Positions 1,541 to 7,504 of a DNA stretch of 48,331 bases are shown piece by piece. The notes under the pieces are model-generated. The model did no database searches. It worked only from the letters and a program-made list of their open reading frames with translations, and was not told the origin of the DNA. The stretch is taken from the NCBI GenBank assembly GCA_937930025.1, contig CALGJW010000060.1, positions 1 through 48,331 on the forward strand, in the 5' to 3' direction. A program made the position numbers and the translations under genes. This DNA comes from an uncultured Saprospiraceae bacterium. GTDB lineage: Bacteria > Bacteroidota > Bacteroidia > Chitinophagales > Saprospiraceae. Position 1 is the stretch's first letter. The number at the start of each line of letters is the position of its first letter.

Positions 1541-1736
1541 GATTAAAAGTTTCTGTCAGTTATAGACCCATACTTCAACATTTAAAAATATACGCTGGAT
1601 TTGTTGCCTTCTCATGCCGCGATGTAGAAAATCTGTCCTGTTAAATTTTTGATTTGCAAAAATTTACGGTTATATGGTTATGGAATTGAAATCAATTTGT
1701 TATATTCACATTATTCAAAAACCAAAAAAAGTAATA

Positions 1737-4268
1737 ATGAACCGATTTAAAAATTTTCAAACCTTCTCTTATTCTTCTCTTATTCTTCTCTTATTCTTTG
1801 CTGTTCCTGACGGACATACTCAGAGTAAAGAAATAATACCTCTTAATCATTCATGTGCTACCGAAATTACGGAAGAAGTATTTGATGCTTTTTTAGAGCA
1901 CAAGCAAAGAAACCTCTCAAGCTATGAGTCTCAAAATAGAAGTGGAACTCCATTTACGGTTCCGGTAAGAGTTATTGTACTGAGGCGATCAGATGGAACG
2001 GGATCTTTTTGGATAAACTCTACTTCGGATGTTGATGATTTTATATTGAATTTAAATGATAGCTATCAAGGCACTGTGGTAGATTTCATCCATTGTGGAG
2101 ATCCTATATTTATCGATAGTGATTATTATTATAATGAATTCCTTGATGGTAATCTCGACTTCAATAATTTCACAAACGACTTATATATTGATTTAGCATA
2201 TTTTTCAAGCGATGCTAATTTCTATGTTCCAGCTCCCGGGATGGGTGGTCGTTCCTCCGCCGAATGGCCTTGTTTAACAGGAGCTCCAGGTACTCCAAAC
2301 GGTATATACGGATGCCAATATGGAGAAATAGACAACCTGATTAGGTTAAATAGTTCTAACCCTAATTCTTCTGCCCATGAAATGGGGCACCATTTGGGTC
2401 TTATGCATCCACACAATGGAGCTTCGATTTACAACCCTCTGTTATTGACTGATAAGGATATTCCTTATAACGATCATCCGTATAATTATTCTTTGGCTTC
2501 AAGAGAGTTAATGTTAAGGAATCCAGACATTGATAAATTATATACTTTGCCTAATTGCAGTTTTGCAGGTGATTTTTGTTGTGATACTCCCGCTACGGGA
2601 TGGCTTAGCGAAGAAAATGGTACTGGTCTGAAGAGCATCCCAGAAAGGTATCCAGCTCCGGGTCAACCAAACTGTTGTAATCCAGGTGGTGGTCCTTTGG
2701 AGTCCGGAATATTTCAAACCTCCGTTGCTGATGGCTGCCTGTTGTCAGGGTCTTATAAGGATTACAATGGGGACAGTTATGAAGATCAGGTTGACCTACA
2801 AAGTATAGCCTCAAACTATATGAGTCATACTTATCTTAATATCTGTGGAAGCCTTAATTTTACGGAAGACCAAAAGATGAGATTCTGCAATATCTATGAT
2901 GCCAGAAGATCACAGCAATATGAAAATGATAAATGTGGTAATCATGAAGACCTAGTTACTTTTTGGGATGGACCGGAAATAATAAATGAAGTTTCTATTC
3001 AGTCCAGGCATAATAACTCGACAAAGTATGCCAATACTTTTACCACCTTTGAAGGGAAGTTCTCCTCAATTCTTTATTCAGATGAATTAACATCTAACGT
3101 TAGAAAACTTGGCAGCAAGAATGGTTTGGATTCGGATCCCTATTTGCCAAGCGATTGGAGAGAAGGGTTAACAGTAACTGATCTCACTATTTTGGCAAGA
3201 TACATAGTGGGACTGCAATCATTAAATGGATTTCAGAAACTAAGTAGCGATGTGAACAATGATGGGAATATTGATGCCTTTGATTTAATCGATATTCAAA
3301 AATTGATACTTTTTGTTACCGATGATTTTCCAAATCAAAATTCGCCATGGAAATTCATTCCTGAATATATTCCTACCGACCACACTACGGCATTTAATAA
3401 TGATCCATATAACATGGATATTGATGGTGTTTCAACTAATGGTTTTCCTATTTATACTGAAAACAATTGGAGTTATTCAATTTTAGATGGATTGAATGGG
3501 GTTGCTGGATTTAATGGGTATAAATTAGGCGATATAAATAAATCATCAATGCTTTCGCCTCCTGTCTTCGCTAATTGTTATGAATCAGATATTTCCATTT
3601 CGAATGACGTTATTCCTGTAAACCAGCCTATTGGTATAGCAGTCGAGGTAAAAGACAATATTAATTTTGAAAGCGCAGAATTAAATTTTGTGCTTCACGA
3701 AAGCGTTGAAATCGCGGATGTAACCTCAAGTTTAAATTCTTTTCAGGAATTGACAAGCTACAGTATTACGGAGAATAAGGGAGTTCAATATTTGAAGTTG
3801 TTAGTATTAAATCAAAACGCTTCGAAAATAGTTTCAAAGAATTATCCAGTTTTTGAAATTACTATGAGTTCAAATGAATCGTTGCCATTAAGTGAATTAA
3901 TCACTTTGGACGCAAACGCTCCATCTGTATTTATTTCGGACTTAGATGACTGTAACACCCTTGCGGAATTAGAAATAAATGTCGATATTGTTGGAGATGA
4001 ATTTTCTAGTAAAATATCCAATTCGGGTAATTTAGGAAGTTTGATTTTCCCAAACCCTAGTGAAGGAAATGTATTTGTGGACCTAAGCCAGTATTCTTTT
4101 GATATAGCGGTGAAAATTGAAATTTTTGATTTAAACGGAAAGAAAATCAATGAAGTCGTCACTAACGAAAAAATGATTCGTTTGGAAACGAAGGATTATC
4201 CGAAAGGAGTCTACTACATTAATATATTTCTAGATGAAATCATCACCCAAAAATTCATTTTAAATTAG
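1737..4268 (+). CDS. Secreted M43-like zinc metalloprotease with dockerin-like segment and T9SS sorting domain
   Basis: Predicted exported protease of 843 residues. The ATG at 1737 is chosen over the upstream 1674 because it starts a normal signal peptide (MNRFKNFQTF, hydrophobic SSLILLLFF, then a cleavage-like site near HTQS). The zinc-binding motif HEMGHHLGLMH (HExxHxxGxxH, first His about residue 214) and a later methionine in SNYMSHTY, plausibly the Met-turn, place it in the metzincin/pappalysin-like (M43) group. Around residues 480-535 a dockerin type I-like pair occurs (LTVTDLTILARYIVG, then DVNNDGNIDAFDLIDIQKLI, a calcium-loop pattern). The last 80 residues (IFPNPSEGNVFVDLS to the end) are a type A T9SS sorting domain, so cell-surface or extracellular release is expected. 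The signal-peptide codons contain a triple 11-bp repeat, described separately. Confidence 0.85.
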   Translation: MNRFKNFQTFSYSSLILLLFFAVPDGHTQSKEIIPLNHSCATEITEEVFDAFLEHKQRNLSSYESQNRSGTPFTVPVRVIVLRRSDGTGSFWINSTSDVDDFILNLNDSYQGTVVDFIHCGDPIFIDSDYYYNEFLDGNLDFNNFTNDLYIDLAYFSSDANFYVPAPGMGGRSSAEWPCLTGAPGTPNGIYGCQYGEIDNLIRLNSSNPNSSAHEMGHHLGLMHPHNGASIYNPLLLTDKDIPYNDHPYNYSLASRELMLRNPDIDKLYTLPNCSFAGDFCCDTPATGWLSEENGTGLKSIPERYPAPGQPNCCNPGGGPLESGIFQTSVADGCLLSGSYKDYNGDSYEDQVDLQSIASNYMSHTYLNICGSLNFTEDQKMRFCNIYDARRSQQYENDKCGNHEDLVTFWDGPEIINEVSIQSRHNNSTKYANTFTTFEGKFSSILYSDELTSNVRKLGSKNGLDSDPYLPSDWREGLTVTDLTILARYIVGLQSLNGFQKLSSDVNNDGNIDAFDLIDIQKLILFVTDDFPNQNSPWKFIPEYIPTDHTTAFNNDPYNMDIDGVSTNGFPIYTENNWSYSILDGLNGVAGFNGYKLGDINKSSMLSPPVFANCYESDISISNDVIPVNQPIGIAVEVKDNINFESAELNFVLHESVEIADVTSSLNSFQELTSYSITENKGVQYLKLLVLNQNASKIVSKNYPVFEITMSSNESLPLSELITLDANAPSVFISDLDDCNTLAELEINVDIVGDEFSSKISNSGNLGSLIFPNPSEGNVFVDLSQYSFDIAVKIEIFDLNGKKINEVVTNEKMIRLETKDYPKGVYYINIFLDEIITQKFILN
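1764..1796 (+). repeat. Three perfect tandem copies of an 11-bp unit inside signal-peptide codons
   Basis: The unit TTCTCTTATTC occurs at 1764-1774, 1775-1785 and 1786-1796 with no mismatch. It encodes the hydrophobic core of the protease signal peptide. Because 11 is not a multiple of three, gain or loss of one unit would shift the reading frame nine to twenty codons after the start; three units together keep the frame. Confidence 0.9.
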
Positions 4269-4283
4269 AAATTAAACCAATAA

Positions 4284-5867
4284 ATGAACATATCAACACA
4301 GCAAATGAAAGCCGCACAAAGCATTGTGGCCTTCATTTGCTTTTTTCTTAATTTTTCTTTTGGACAAACCTTAGAATTAGAGAAAACAAATCAGTATTCT
4401 TTTCTAGCAGGGCAGCATACATTCAATTGGTTTATACCAAATTTTAAAGTTCGTTTTGATTCTAAATCTAATGTATTTTTTAATTTAAACTATTTAACTC
4501 CTGGCACTTCAAACGGAATTGCATTTGGAAGTATTATTGATAACCAGATTTCCCTTTTTGACACGACTGATGTGGTTGGTTTCCCAGAACAATTGATTAA
4601 TATATTTGTAGATGACATCGATAACCGTCATTATTCTGTAGCGAGCCCTTTTGGTGGAAGAGTGAGTAAGGCAGATAAAGAGGGCAATATTTTATGGGAT
4701 TGTTTTTCATCCAATGACAAGCCATTTAATCCAGTTTTCCATATCCTGTCCAGCGATAATCATCCTATTATATTGTGGGATAAATTGATTCAAGATACCA
4801 CTCAAAGAACCTTGGTAAAACTTGACAATGAAACAGGAGCTATTTTATGGGAAAGTGAAAATGTTTTTGATATTACTGGAGATATGACGGGAAGAATCCT
4901 TAAGGAAGTAGATGGCCACTTTCAGCTATTTCAAAACAATAATAATTTTCTAAATATAACCTTTTTCGATCAGAACGGAATTGTAACTCAATCAAATAGT
5001 AAAGAATTAAATGGCAATTCACCAAGATATATTATCAATGTAGATGACTTTGGTAATACTTATCTTGGAATGGATGGTTGGGGTTATCAATGCCCTAAAC
5101 TAAATACACTAGGAGACACCATATGGTTCTATAATCGCCCTTCCCCTTTTGGAAATGAAGTCACTAATCGAACATTGGATATCCTTTTTGACCAGTCAGG
5201 ATCAGTCTATCTTTCTGGCCCTTATCGTTTTATTGCAGATAGTACCTCCTCCATGTTGTTGACCAAATTGGATGCCGAAGGGGAGATGTTATGGGAAACT
5301 TCAACCCATCACCTTAATGAGGCTGTAACAATATTTCCCAGTAAAACATTTATTAATAATGATACTATTTGGACTGCTTTCAATTTGTCCTTTGGCCCCG
5401 GTGATTTTAGAGGAGGTGTGATGGCCTTTGATTTAGAAGGCGACATTTTACTTTACAAAGAGATTGAAGAATTTTCCCCAATTGGACTATCGGGCTGGAT
5501 GGATTTTCATGAAGATGAGATCGTCATCCTAGGATCATCTAGCGCAGAAATAGATACCGATAGTATTTACCAACATATTATTCGCTATAAAGTTTCGACC
5601 ATAACAAATGTAAGTACCCCAGAAGTTCAAACGGTCAAAATTATTCCTTATCCGAATCCCAGCTCAGATTGGTTATCCTTTAAAAACTTGAATGCGGCTG
5701 AACTTGATTTTATTAAAATCTCAGACATGCAAGGAAGGGTGGTTTCCTTTTTGGAAAAGGATGACATTGAAGATTCTATTAACATCAATTATCTGGCAGC
5801 TGGCACCTACATTTTTAATTATGGAGTCGATGGGAAGCAGTATGCGGCGAAAATTGTGAAGCAGTAG
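4284..5867 (+). CDS. Secreted propeller-like protein with T9SS sorting domain, tandem paralog copy 1
   Basis: Product of 527 residues with a signal peptide (MKAAQSIVAFICFFLNFSFG, cleavage near Q-T), a central region of repeated beta-strand patterns with LW-D/E and ILSSDNHPIIL-like units reminiscent of beta-propeller blades, and a type A T9SS sorting domain in the last 75 or so residues (YPNPSSDWLSF ... AAKIVKQ). It is homologous over its full length to the next gene (5902-7485), from which it is separated by 34 bp. Translation could start at 4284 or at the in-frame ATG at 4305, which gives a more typical signal peptide and lies in the left arm of a strong hairpin. It follows the M43 protease by 15 bp, so the three may be co-transcribed. 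Function is unknown; a surface or secreted binding role is a guess. Confidence 0.8.
   Translation: MNISTQQMKAAQSIVAFICFFLNFSFGQTLELEKTNQYSFLAGQHTFNWFIPNFKVRFDSKSNVFFNLNYLTPGTSNGIAFGSIIDNQISLFDTTDVVGFPEQLINIFVDDIDNRHYSVASPFGGRVSKADKEGNILWDCFSSNDKPFNPVFHILSSDNHPIILWDKLIQDTTQRTLVKLDNETGAILWESENVFDITGDMTGRILKEVDGHFQLFQNNNNFLNITFFDQNGIVTQSNSKELNGNSPRYIINVDDFGNTYLGMDGWGYQCPKLNTLGDTIWFYNRPSPFGNEVTNRTLDILFDQSGSVYLSGPYRFIADSTSSMLLTKLDAEGEMLWETSTHHLNEAVTIFPSKTFINNDTIWTAFNLSFGPGDFRGGVMAFDLEGDILLYKEIEEFSPIGLSGWMDFHEDEIVILGSSSAEIDTDSIYQHIIRYKVSTITNVSTPEVQTVKIIPYPNPSSDWLSFKNLNAAELDFIKISDMQGRVVSFLEKDDIEDSININYLAAGTYIFNYGVDGKQYAAKIVKQ
4301..4346 (+). promoter_or_regulatory. Terminator-like hairpin within the signal-peptide codons, copy 1
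   Basis: Left arm 4301-4316 (GCAAATGAAAGCCGCA) pairs with right arm 4325-4340 (TGTGGCCTTCATTTGC) across an 8-nt loop, with one A-C mismatch and one G-T pair. It is followed directly by six T residues (4341-4346). The arm includes the internal ATG at 4305. A paralogous hairpin sits at the same place in the next gene with pair-preserving substitutions. It could act as an attenuator/intrinsic terminator or hide the start codon; this is inference. Confidence 0.65.
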
Positions 5868-5886
5868 ATTGGGTTCGTATTAATAG
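5541..5886 (+). repeat. Near-identical 3' segment shared with the downstream paralog (copy 1)
   Basis: This segment matches 7159-7504 at a constant offset of 1618 bases and includes the sorting-domain codons, the stop and 19 bases after it. Within it, 5674-5761 is identical to 7292-7379 over 88 bases, whereas the upstream parts of the two genes are clearly more diverged. Confidence 0.85.
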
Positions 5887-5901
5887 GTTTATATTTAAAA
5901 C

Positions 5902-7485
5902 ATGAACATATCAACTCAAAAGATGAAAGCCACAAAACTTACTGTGGCTTTCATCTTGTTTTTTTTTAATGTCTCGTTCAGCCAAACATTGGAATTGGAG
6001 AAAATTGCGCAATATTCTCTTCTTTCAGGAGAACATGCTGTAACCGCTCTTGGTCCGAAAAAAGTACTTTTTGATTCAGAATCCGATATTTTTTTTAATC
6101 TGGGTTATGTAAACCCTGGAACTTCCAATGGTTTAGTTTTTGGAAGTATTGTAGCCGACGAGTTTCTGCTTTTTGACACAGCTGATGTTGTTGGTTTTCC
6201 AGATCAGCTCATCAATATATTGGTGGATGAGGATGATAATTGTCACTACTCAACTGTAGGTCCATTTGGTGGGAGAATTATTAAGGCGAATAAGGCAGGA
6301 GTTATTTTCTGGGAATGTTTTGCTTCCAACAACAAGCCTTTTAATCCAGTTTTTCATATTATTTCTGAAGACAACCATCCCGTTGTTTTGCTGGACGAAA
6401 ATTTTCTAGACACCACCGAGAGAAGGTTGGTTAAAATAAATAACACCACCGGCGAAAAACTTTGGGAAAGTGAAAATATTTTTGAAACAACGGGAGTAAT
6501 GTCTGCACATTTTTTAAAAGAGGTAAATGGCCGTTTTCAGCTTTTTCAAAACAGTGATGACTCGATGAACATCATGCAATTCGATCAGGATGGTAATATT
6601 GTGGAATCAAATAATAAAGTATTGTCCGGTAATTCATTTCCGAATGAATATATCAATATGGATGAGGAGGGTAATACTTATCTCGGTTTTGAAGGTTGGG
6701 GGTACAAGTGTCCTAAACTAAATCAACATGGAGATACCCTTTGGTTTTATGAACGCCCTTCCCCTTTTGGAATTGAAACCACTAACCGAACGTTAGATAT
6801 ACTCTTTGATAGTCAGCACTCAACTTATATCTCAGGTCCGTATAGGTTCGAGGAGGAGGGTCTTTTTTCAATGTTATTGACAAAGCTAAATAGCGATGGA
6901 GAAGTTATATGGGAAACCTCAACGCACTATTTGAGCGATTCAGCAACAATATTCCCCAATAAAACTTTTATAAATAAAGATACCATTTGGAGTACAGTTG
7001 AATTGTTCTATGGTCCAGGCAATGCAAAAGGAGCAATAATTGCTTTTGATGTTGAGGGTAATGTTTTGTTGTTCAAAGAGATCGAAGAATTTTCCCCTAT
7101 AGGACGATCAGCTTGGATGGATTTTCACGAAGATGAAATAGCCATCATAGGATCTTCTAGCGCAGAAATAGATACCGACAGTATTTACCAGCATATTATT
7201 CGGTATAAAGTTTCGACCATTACAAATGTAAGCACTCCAGAAGTACAAACGGTCAAAATAATTCCCTATCCCAACCCCAGCTCAGATTGGGTATCCTTTA
7301 AAAACTTGAATGCGGCTGAACTTGATTTTATTAAAATCTCAGACATGCAAGGAAGGGTGGTTTCCTTTTTGGAAAAGGAGGACATTGAAGATGTTATCAA
7401 CATCCTTTATCTAGCAGCCGGCACTTATATTATCAATTACGGCGTTGCTGGGAAGCAGTATGCGGCGAAAATTGTGAAGCAGTAG
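5902..7485 (+). CDS. Secreted propeller-like protein with T9SS sorting domain, tandem paralog copy 2
   Basis: Product of 527 residues, the same length as its upstream neighbour and collinear with it: signal peptide (MKATKLTVAFILFFFNVSFS from the second Met), the same blade-like repeats (LFDTADVVGFPDQLINI, SSNNKPFNPVFHI-type segments) and an almost identical type A T9SS sorting domain ending AAKIVKQ. The central region has many substitutions relative to copy 1, but motif spacing is kept, so this is an old tandem duplication with a recently homogenised 3' end. The alternative start at 5923 lies inside the left arm of a perfect 15-bp hairpin. No catalytic motif was recognised. The unit ends 144 bp before the molybdoenzyme gene. 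Confidence 0.8.
   Translation: MNISTQKMKATKLTVAFILFFFNVSFSQTLELEKIAQYSLLSGEHAVTALGPKKVLFDSESDIFFNLGYVNPGTSNGLVFGSIVADEFLLFDTADVVGFPDQLINILVDEDDNCHYSTVGPFGGRIIKANKAGVIFWECFASNNKPFNPVFHIISEDNHPVVLLDENFLDTTERRLVKINNTTGEKLWESENIFETTGVMSAHFLKEVNGRFQLFQNSDDSMNIMQFDQDGNIVESNNKVLSGNSFPNEYINMDEEGNTYLGFEGWGYKCPKLNQHGDTLWFYERPSPFGIETTNRTLDILFDSQHSTYISGPYRFEEEGLFSMLLTKLNSDGEVIWETSTHYLSDSATIFPNKTFINKDTIWSTVELFYGPGNAKGAIIAFDVEGNVLLFKEIEEFSPIGRSAWMDFHEDEIAIIGSSSAEIDTDSIYQHIIRYKVSTITNVSTPEVQTVKIIPYPNPSSDWVSFKNLNAAELDFIKISDMQGRVVSFLEKEDIEDVINILYLAAGTYIINYGVAGKQYAAKIVKQ
5920..5967 (+). promoter_or_regulatory. Terminator-like hairpin within the signal-peptide codons, copy 2
   Basis: Left arm 5920-5934 (AAGATGAAAGCCACA) is perfectly complementary to right arm 5943-5957 (TGTGGCTTTCATCTT) with an 8-nt loop. 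A G and nine T residues (5959-5967) follow, giving the shape of an intrinsic terminator about 20-65 bases into the reading frame. The second in-frame ATG (5923) is in the stem. Confidence 0.7.
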
Positions 7486-7504
7486 CTTGGGTTCGTATTA
7501 ATAG
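7159..7504 (+). repeat. Near-identical 3' segment shared with the upstream paralog (copy 2)
   Basis: Partner of 5541-5886; it covers the last 109 codons of copy 2 and the first 19 bases after its stop, including the shared TTGGGTTCGTATTAATAG. Confidence 0.85.

What the first reader, a model, noticed from the sequence alone, without database searches (positions are those of the whole stretch)
4301..4346. Terminator-like hairpins in the signal-peptide codons of both tandem paralogs, with covarying stem positions
Each copy has a stem of 15-16 bp, an 8-nt loop and then a T-run, in the first 20 codons. Comparing copies, the pair at the base before ATG changes from A-T to G-C, and the third position from C-G to A-T, both preserving pairing; a G-T becomes A-T. 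Such changes suggest selection for structure, not only for the encoded peptide. It could be an attenuator, a start-codon lid over the ATG at 4305/5923, or a target for an RNA-binding protein. I know of no described element like this, but I have not searched.
Basis: seen in the sequence. Interest (0 to 1): 0.62.

Follow-up and report, generated by a model that had tools for sequence, protein, structure and literature searches.

The report
Hairpins inside signal-peptide codons
Two neighbouring genes for secreted proteins carry a strong RNA hairpin inside the codons of their signal peptide that has outlived near-saturating synonymous change, and a similar hairpin with matched changes on both arms was found in another family of secreted proteins, which hints at an unrecognised brake on making such proteins, or at a DNA-copying process that keeps palindromes perfect.

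Summary
Stems of 16 pairs (copy 1) and 15 pairs (copy 2), each with an 8-nt loop, lie in codons 6-20 of two tandem T9SS-cargo genes and run into T6/T9 tracts. In 1120 ORFs from 1.6 Mb they were the only hairpins of -15 kcal/mol or lower near a CDS start with such a tract. Two results strengthen it. Synonymous sites are near saturation between the copies (dS 1.5-1.8, dN/dS 0.12-0.14), yet 16 of 17 columns pair in each. And a second T9SS-cargo family in the same genome, with a homolog in another species, has a hairpin over the signal-peptide end with 6 of 15 pairs changed on both sides and 42 of 43 cells paired. That hairpin has no T-tract, so termination is not the common denominator. I favour a maintained RNA brake, acting in the window pair as an early intragenic terminator. 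Template-switch upkeep of coding palindromes is a serious rival that I could not exclude. No transcript data exist here.

The parts
4284..5867 (+). copy 1 gene, 527 aa: N-terminal signal peptide (recognised by eye and by a crude hydrophobicity rule), T9SS C-terminal sorting domain
   Evidence: ORF; PF18962 E 3.1e-10; 70% aa identity to copy 2; dN/dS 0.16 over the whole gene
4300..4316 (+). 5' arm of hairpin, copy 1 (codons 6-11; holds the second in-frame ATG 4305)
4317..4324 (+). 8-nt loop, copy 1
4325..4341 (+). 3' arm of hairpin, copy 1
4341..4346 (+). T6 tract at the end of the stem (Phe codons of the signal-peptide core)
5902..7485 (+). copy 2 gene, 527 aa, tandem paralog with T9SS sorting domain
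   Evidence: ORF; PF18962 E 9.6e-09
5920..5934 (+). 5' arm of hairpin, copy 2 (holds ATG 5923)
5935..5942 (+). 8-nt loop, copy 2
5943..5957 (+). 3' arm of hairpin, copy 2, perfect complement
5959..5967 (+). T9 tract, one base after the stem
1674..4268 (+). upstream gene, 864 aa, T9SS sorting domain; its stop lies 31 nt before the copy 1 hairpin

Best explanation
The hairpin is an RNA structure kept in the signal-peptide codons alongside the peptide, and it acts as a brake on the gene. In the window pair the stem followed at once by a U-tract, about 16-58 nt after the start codon, works as an early intragenic intrinsic terminator: most transcripts end there unless a ribosome (for instance one re-initiating from the upstream stop, 15 nt before the ATG in copy 1 and 34 nt in copy 2) or an antitermination factor lets RNA polymerase through. 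In the second family, whose hairpin has no U-tract, the same kind of hairpin would brake translation instead. SHOWN: the structure, the T-tract, its survival over near-saturated synonymous divergence, and a covarying hairpin in a second T9SS-cargo family. INFERRED: that it acts as RNA, that it terminates, that termination is regulated.
For: Stability and shuffles. Only hairpins of -15 kcal/mol or lower with 5 or more T in the next 8 bases within 300 nt of a CDS start in 1120 ORFs. Stem lengths and energies within the range of the 22 hairpins with T-tracts that follow stop codons. At a given position of a G000 signal-peptide CDS an 8-mer with 7 or more T occurs in 1.6%, yet one sits at the stem in both copies (which are paralogs, so not independent). 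dS 1.52 in codons 1-30 and 1.82 in codons 31-420 with dN/dS 0.12 and 0.14, while 16 of 17 columns pair in each copy. Codon redraws 3 of 20000 for copy 2. Second family: 6 of 15 pairs changed on both sides, 42 of 43 cells paired, 2-3 of 500 shuffles as good, slid controls 31-43% paired. A review (PMC7858274, passages) reports from Li et al. 2015 that intrinsic terminators in the first 100 nt of ORFs terminated at close to 100%.
Against: The second family's hairpins are not followed by a T-tract, so termination cannot be the general function. A loop of 8 is unusual: 20 of the 22 such hairpins after stop codons have loops of 3-6, the other two 9 and 10. No antiterminator fold. Near-full termination would silence genes that purifying selection says are used. 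Window-pair covariation alone is weak. Copy 1 by itself is only moderately unusual for its peptide (316 of 20000). Only two copies were found in what was searched. No expression data.
Confidence: 0.4

Rival explanations
1. Coding palindromes made and re-perfected by template switching during DNA replication. An imperfect inverted repeat in the loosely constrained signal-peptide codons is repeatedly corrected by copying one arm from the other, so the arms change together without selection on RNA; any termination is a side effect of Phe codons.
For: The process is described and can give multi-base compensatory changes (PMC8794818, abstract and discussion); it altered 39 coding genes in yeast strains, about 1% of those analysed (PMC8604942, passages). 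Perfect stems in copy 2, L031 and L211. Between L050 and L031, 5 of the 6 pairs changed on both sides have no standard pair as a single-step intermediate (worked out by hand). Hairpins are patchy: 5 of 41 members at -15 kcal/mol or lower.
Against: Hairpins concentrate in signal-peptide codons: interior hairpins of score 13 or more are 11 in 1.395 Mb against 5 in 17.8 kb of G000 signal-peptide starts. Persistence of the same columns in paralogs and in another species over near-saturated synonymous change. No loop inversion between copies (by eye).
Confidence: 0.3
2. The hairpin acts on translation or secretion rather than transcription: it slows the lead ribosome while the signal peptide is made, or forces use of the upstream ATG by hiding the internal one.
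For: It would cover both families, including the one without a T-tract. The stem starts 16 nt after the first ATG, outside an initiating ribosome's usual footprint (recalled, about +15), while ATG 4305/5923 is buried.
Against: No direct test; ribosomes can unwind such stems (recalled); does not use the T-tract; same-genus G001 signal-peptide genes in the sample lack such hairpins (0 of 208 at score 13 or more).
Confidence: 0.16
3. By-product of signal-peptide composition: Met-Lys-Ala codons in the n-region happen to complement Ala-Phe-Ile codons in the core, and Phe codons give the T-run.
For: Redrawn codons already fold to -13.1 (copy 1) and -9.8 (copy 2) kcal/mol on average; copy 1 is reached by 316 of 20000; one member of the other family, L212, is reached by 1182 of 8000. 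169 of 198 G000 signal-peptide genes hold some 8-mer with 6 or more T in the first 84 nt.
Against: Copy 2 is reached by 3 of 20000; L128 by 4, L203 by 13, L129 by 56 and L211 by 0 of 8000; 0 of 208 G001 signal-peptide genes reach score 13.
Confidence: 0.06
4. DNA-level dyad: a binding site for a regulator that needs the inverted repeat as DNA.
For: Compensatory changes keep a DNA palindrome as well as an RNA stem.
Against: Arm sequences differ between the families, and the core pattern of the window arms has no third copy in the genome, unlike an operator read by one protein; G.U and A.C in copy 1 would break the DNA dyad.
Confidence: 0.05

Closest known systems
Intrinsic (Rho-independent) terminators, intragenic or in 5' leaders, acting by premature termination
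   Same: Stable stem directly followed by a U-tract; premature termination and ORF-internal RNA 3' ends are known (PMC7815308, passages; PMC7858274, passages).
   Different: Here the stem is itself signal-peptide coding sequence of a full-length gene, has an 8-nt loop, and no antiterminator was found.
Coding palindromes in Nematomorpha mitochondrial genes (PMC6649704, abstract and section list only)
   Same: Perfect inverted repeats inside coding sequence, both arms translated.
   Different: Those reach 284 bp in mitochondrial genes of animals; these are 12-16 pairs in signal-peptide codons of secreted bacterial proteins.
Template-switch hairpins (PMC8794818, abstract and discussion; PMC8604942, passages)
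   Same: Perfect stems whose arms change together.
   Different: Concentrated in one functional segment (signal peptide); no ancestor could be reconstructed to show a switch.

Membership tests
Intrinsic terminator | Stable GC-containing stem-loop | tested here: met
   -22.2 and -23.6 kcal/mol
Intrinsic terminator | U-tract starting within about 2 nt of the stem | tested here: met
   7 of 8 T after 4341 and 8 of 8 after 5959
Intrinsic terminator | RNA 3' ends at the U-tract in vivo | not testable with these tools
   No transcript data for this metagenome-assembled genome
Attenuator with alternative folds | Alternative antiterminator pairing upstream | tested here: not met
   Four transcript pieces ending just past the 5' arm fold no better than shuffles, z +0.30 to -0.53
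Known RNA family (Rfam 15) | Match at gathering score | tested here: not met
   0 matches in the window
RNA structure under selection | Covariation beyond chance across homologs | tested here: inconclusive
   Window pair weak (2 double changes, 139 of 500 shuffles); second family strong (6 of 15 pairs, 2-3 of 500) but only 3 sequences, and template switching is not excluded
Template-switch palindrome | Multi-base change of one arm to the complement of the other on one branch | tested here: inconclusive
   No outgroup for the window pair; no branch could be assigned
Dispersed repeat (REP-like) | Many copies of the sequence in the genome | tested here: not met
   Core pattern of the arms found only at the two sites in the held genome, which is about 74% complete

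The most novel reading that the evidence does not exclude
T9SS-cargo genes of Saprospiraceae and related Bacteroidota carry a class of selected RNA hairpins inside their signal-peptide codons, with free sequence but fixed place, that meter how much secreted protein is made: by early termination where the core's Phe codons supply a U-tract, by slowing the ribosome elsewhere.
Probability: 0.27. Interest if true: 0.75.

Novelty: new variant of a known kind. Interest (0 to 1): 0.5.

Why it matters
If the hairpins are selected, signal-peptide codons carry a second message, and the amount of a secreted protein could be set by an element that a survey of leaders and promoters would miss. If they are kept perfect by template switching, they are clean natural cases of coding palindromes evolving by arm copying in bacteria. 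Either way the pattern gives a direct test: synonymous changes that break and restore the stem.

Tried and rejected
Homologs of the window genes for a true covariation test: none with the N-terminus. Of 99 relatives, 13 had a match, 12 of them in the C-terminal sorting region only and one a distant body match (L012, 28%), whose 5' end has no strong hairpin (best stem 6 pairs). GTDB contigs, IMG/VR and plasmids gave nothing (the pattern scans of 11 and 14 reach close relatives only). Dispersed repeat: rejected. Start downstream of the hairpin: rejected by reading the frame: copy 1 has no ATG, GTG or TTG between the stem and the mature protein; copy 2 has only a TTG at the very end of the stem (5956), which would leave no n-region. 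Antiterminator: none. Rfam: none. AlphaFold model of copy 1: mean pLDDT 41.6, too poor to search, not used. Promoter (TTG, 17-23 nt, TAnnTTTG; the -7 and -33 motifs are quoted in PMC7366714, passages): one 1-mismatch match before copy 2 (5869-5897), none before copy 1; 95 such matches in the window's + strand against 65 in mononucleotide shuffles, so not used. The first scan of second-family loci read only the + strand and is void; repeated. In one search the window-pair figures used a wrong index and are void; repeated. In my notebook I first wrote that the L203 hairpin was in another register; aligning from its outer end showed the same columns with a 3-nt shorter loop region. One search failed because I gave reverse-strand coordinates (redone); one search failed on a search word (redone with other terms).

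Full report
The window is contig C60 of G000, a metagenome-assembled genome of 5.0 Mb in 637 contigs with an estimated completeness of 74%. The genome is rich in T9SS sorting domains: of 314 PF18962 candidates 150 were scored, and all 150 matched. That it is a Bacteroidota genome of or near Saprospiraceae is my inference from this and from the named loci of the second family: the closest, L203 (Saprospiraceae bacterium SS_bin_23), has the same first 400 nt of the gene as L175 in same-genus genome G002.

What is there. Two tandem genes, 4284-5867 and 5902-7485, each 527 aa with a C-terminal T9SS sorting domain, are 70% identical. Each begins with what reads as a signal peptide (MNISTQQMKAAQSIVAFICFFLNFSFGQ and MNISTQKMKATKLTVAFILFFFNVSFSQ). 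I have no signal-peptide predictor here; the call is by eye and by a crude hydrophobicity rule. The hairpins cover codons 6-20. Copy 1 has 16 pairs and one mismatch, copy 2 has 15 perfect pairs, both with loops of 8, then T6 and T9. Energies are -22.2 and -23.6 kcal/mol with z -5.6 and -7.1. No usable start codon follows the hairpin before the mature protein, so the hairpin is translated. Between the copies the alignment is poor before 4284/5902, and then 15 of 16 bases agree, so the upstream ATG is the likelier start and the ATG inside the stem is internal.

Is it more than chance? I scanned 1.6 Mb in 101 stretches: the window, 40 own-genome stretches, 40 of same-genus G001, and 20 of two other genera. 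The own-genome set was not random. Eight contigs were picked because they had weak sorting-domain matches, and one of them (C206) holds L031; three contigs (C62, C542, C531) were added because they hold second-family homologs. Among 1120 ORFs of 120 aa or more, 62 hairpins of -12 kcal/mol or lower lay in the first 300 nt, 23 were -15 or lower, and of these only the two window hairpins had 5 or more T in the next 8 bases. A scan with other rules (ORFs from 100 aa, stems overlapping the start allowed) listed two more at CDS 5' ends with T-tracts, in L052 (a 345-nt ORF, 22 nt after another gene's stop) and L078; both stems begin before the called start codon.

With 40 more own-genome stretches, stems of score 13 or more in the first 90 nt of signal-peptide-like genes number 5 of 198 in G000 (two paralog pairs and one lipoprotein gene in L048, so three independent cases), 0 of 208 in G001 and 0 of 92 in the other two genomes. 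In genes without such a start they number 0 of 260, 3 of 352 and 0 of 180. One G001 case seen (L068) looked like a terminator overlapping a spurious ORF; I did not inspect the other two. In gene interiors they number 11 in 1.395 Mb.

Could the peptide alone give it? Redrawing synonymous codons by the window's codon usage, 316 of 20000 versions of the copy 1 hairpin region and 3 of 20000 of copy 2 fold as well; over the first 31 codons 791 and 16 of 20000. The peptide does favour pairing: the redrawn mean for copy 1 is -13.1 kcal/mol. The T-run is also partly a matter of Phe codons: 169 of 198 G000 signal-peptide genes have some 8-mer with 6 or more T in the first 84 nt, but at a given position such an 8-mer occurs in 7.0%, and one with 7 or more in 1.6%.

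Covariation between the copies. Over 17 columns, 4 bases differ on each arm. Three pairs change on both sides; two stay paired and one (4301/4340) is lost. One G.T becomes A-T and one A.C becomes A-T. With the same numbers of changes placed at random, pairing as good occurs with P about 0.0008, and two paired double changes with P about 0.05; with sites fixed and targets random P is 0.085 or 0.022 by direction. With the two outer columns left out, overall P is 0.00025 or 0.0098. In the shuffle test 139 of 500 shuffles do as well. The divergence adds weight: dS (Nei-Gojobori, imprecise at this level) is 1.52 in codons 1-30 and 1.82 in codons 31-420, with dN/dS 0.12 and 0.14. Synonymous sites are near saturation, so an unconstrained stem should have decayed, and both genes look to be under purifying selection.

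An independent case. The background scan turned up a second T9SS-cargo family in the same genome (L050 and L031, cut again as L128 and L129; 50% aa identity, sorting domain in both). Each has a 15-pair, 4-nt-loop hairpin 33-66 nt after its ATG, over the end of the signal peptide, with different arm sequences. The homolog in another genome of the genus (L175 in G002; the start is identical in named contig L203) has 13 pairs at the same place, one mismatch and a 3-nt shorter loop region. Aligned, 6 of 15 pairs change on both sides, one pair shows three pair types, 42 of 43 cells pair, and 2-3 of 500 shuffles do as well; with the partner slid by 1-3 columns pairing falls to 31-43%. For the L050/L031 pair alone P is about 1e-5. 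This hairpin is not followed by a T-tract.

Spread in that family. Of 50 ORF matches, 41 had a signal-peptide start: 40 by my ATG-based rule and L203, whose start is GTG, set by hand. No two of the 50 share an identical 200-nt stretch at the tested place. Nine were dropped: five partial ORFs at locus ends and four full ones that the rule missed. Checked afterwards, three of these four (L201, L186, L192) have no strong hairpin and one, the second copy in L211, has a perfect 12-pair stem of -22.9 kcal/mol. Hairpins of score 11 or more among the 41: 6 in 3,690 nt of signal-peptide starts against 4 in 66,039 nt of the rest, about 27-fold denser. At 13 or more: 4 (L128, L129, L211, L212) against 0. 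One of the six (L213) is weak, -5.6 kcal/mol; the other five are -15 or lower. L211 and L212 are from named MAGs (Flavobacteriales bacterium Go_SlAct_bin_193; Bacteroidetes bacterium SZAS-77). L212 is not unusual for its peptide (1182 of 8000 redraws as stable); L211 is (0 of 8000). Most members have no such hairpin.

How it may work. In the window pair the element has terminator anatomy. Its stem begins 31 nt after the upstream stop in copy 1 and about 50 in copy 2. A review read in passages (PMC7858274) states that intrinsic terminators in the first 100 nt of ORFs terminated at close to 100% in the work of Li et al. 2015, and less further on, explained by ribosomes catching up with the polymerase. 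At 16-58 nt this one would act in that zone, so the gene would be nearly off unless something lets polymerase pass. No antiterminator fold was found, so an attenuator with alternative folds is not supported; a coupled ribosome or an antitermination factor would be needed. Since the second family lacks the T-tract, what the families share is only a strong hairpin in signal-peptide codons.

The rival I take most seriously is mutational. Template switching can create perfect stems and may change both arms together (PMC8794818, abstract and discussion; its authors call the evidence for upkeep of short stems circumstantial), and has altered coding sequence in yeast (PMC8604942, passages). Signal-peptide codons are loosely constrained (general knowledge), so such palindromes would be tolerated there. 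Against a purely mutational account stand the persistence of the same columns across paralogs and species at near-saturated dS and the rarity of such stems elsewhere in genes. I could not reconstruct ancestors, so this stays open.

Literature. Searches for signal-peptide hairpins, intragenic terminators in signal sequences, T9SS with RNA hairpins, and coding-sequence covariation with signal peptides listed no paper whose title or shown abstract start describes such an element. One search listed 20 of 32 papers, and the library holds open-licence papers only.

Noticed in passing
window 5959-5967: T9 homopolymer in the signal-peptide codons of copy 2 (copy 1 has T6 then C); slippage there would shift the frame, so it could be a phase-variable site.
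   Followed up: no
window about 5544-5867 and 7162-7485: The C-terminal part (about codons 421-527) of the two copies has dS 0.38 against 1.8 in the body, which looks like recent gene conversion of the sorting domain.
   Followed up: partly
window 5869-5886 and 7487-7504: The same 18 bases, TTGGGTTCGTATTAATAG, follow the stop codon of both copies; before copy 2 they form part of a weak Bacteroidota-type promoter match.
   Followed up: partly
L208 and L210, just before the ATG of second-family genes: Terminator-like hairpins with T-runs lie just before the likely start: 18 nt (L208) and 11 nt (L210) between stem and ATG, so these genes begin almost directly behind what looks like the previous gene's terminator.
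   Followed up: no
L048, reverse strand, gene start MTSILFIFALSCGSEKG: A lipoprotein-like gene with an 18-pair hairpin (6 G.U), -19.3 kcal/mol, over its signal-peptide codons.
   Followed up: no
L132 / L174 (G000 C531): An 8-pair stem with a TTCG loop overlaps the first in-frame ATG of another second-family gene, just before the likelier start.
   Followed up: no
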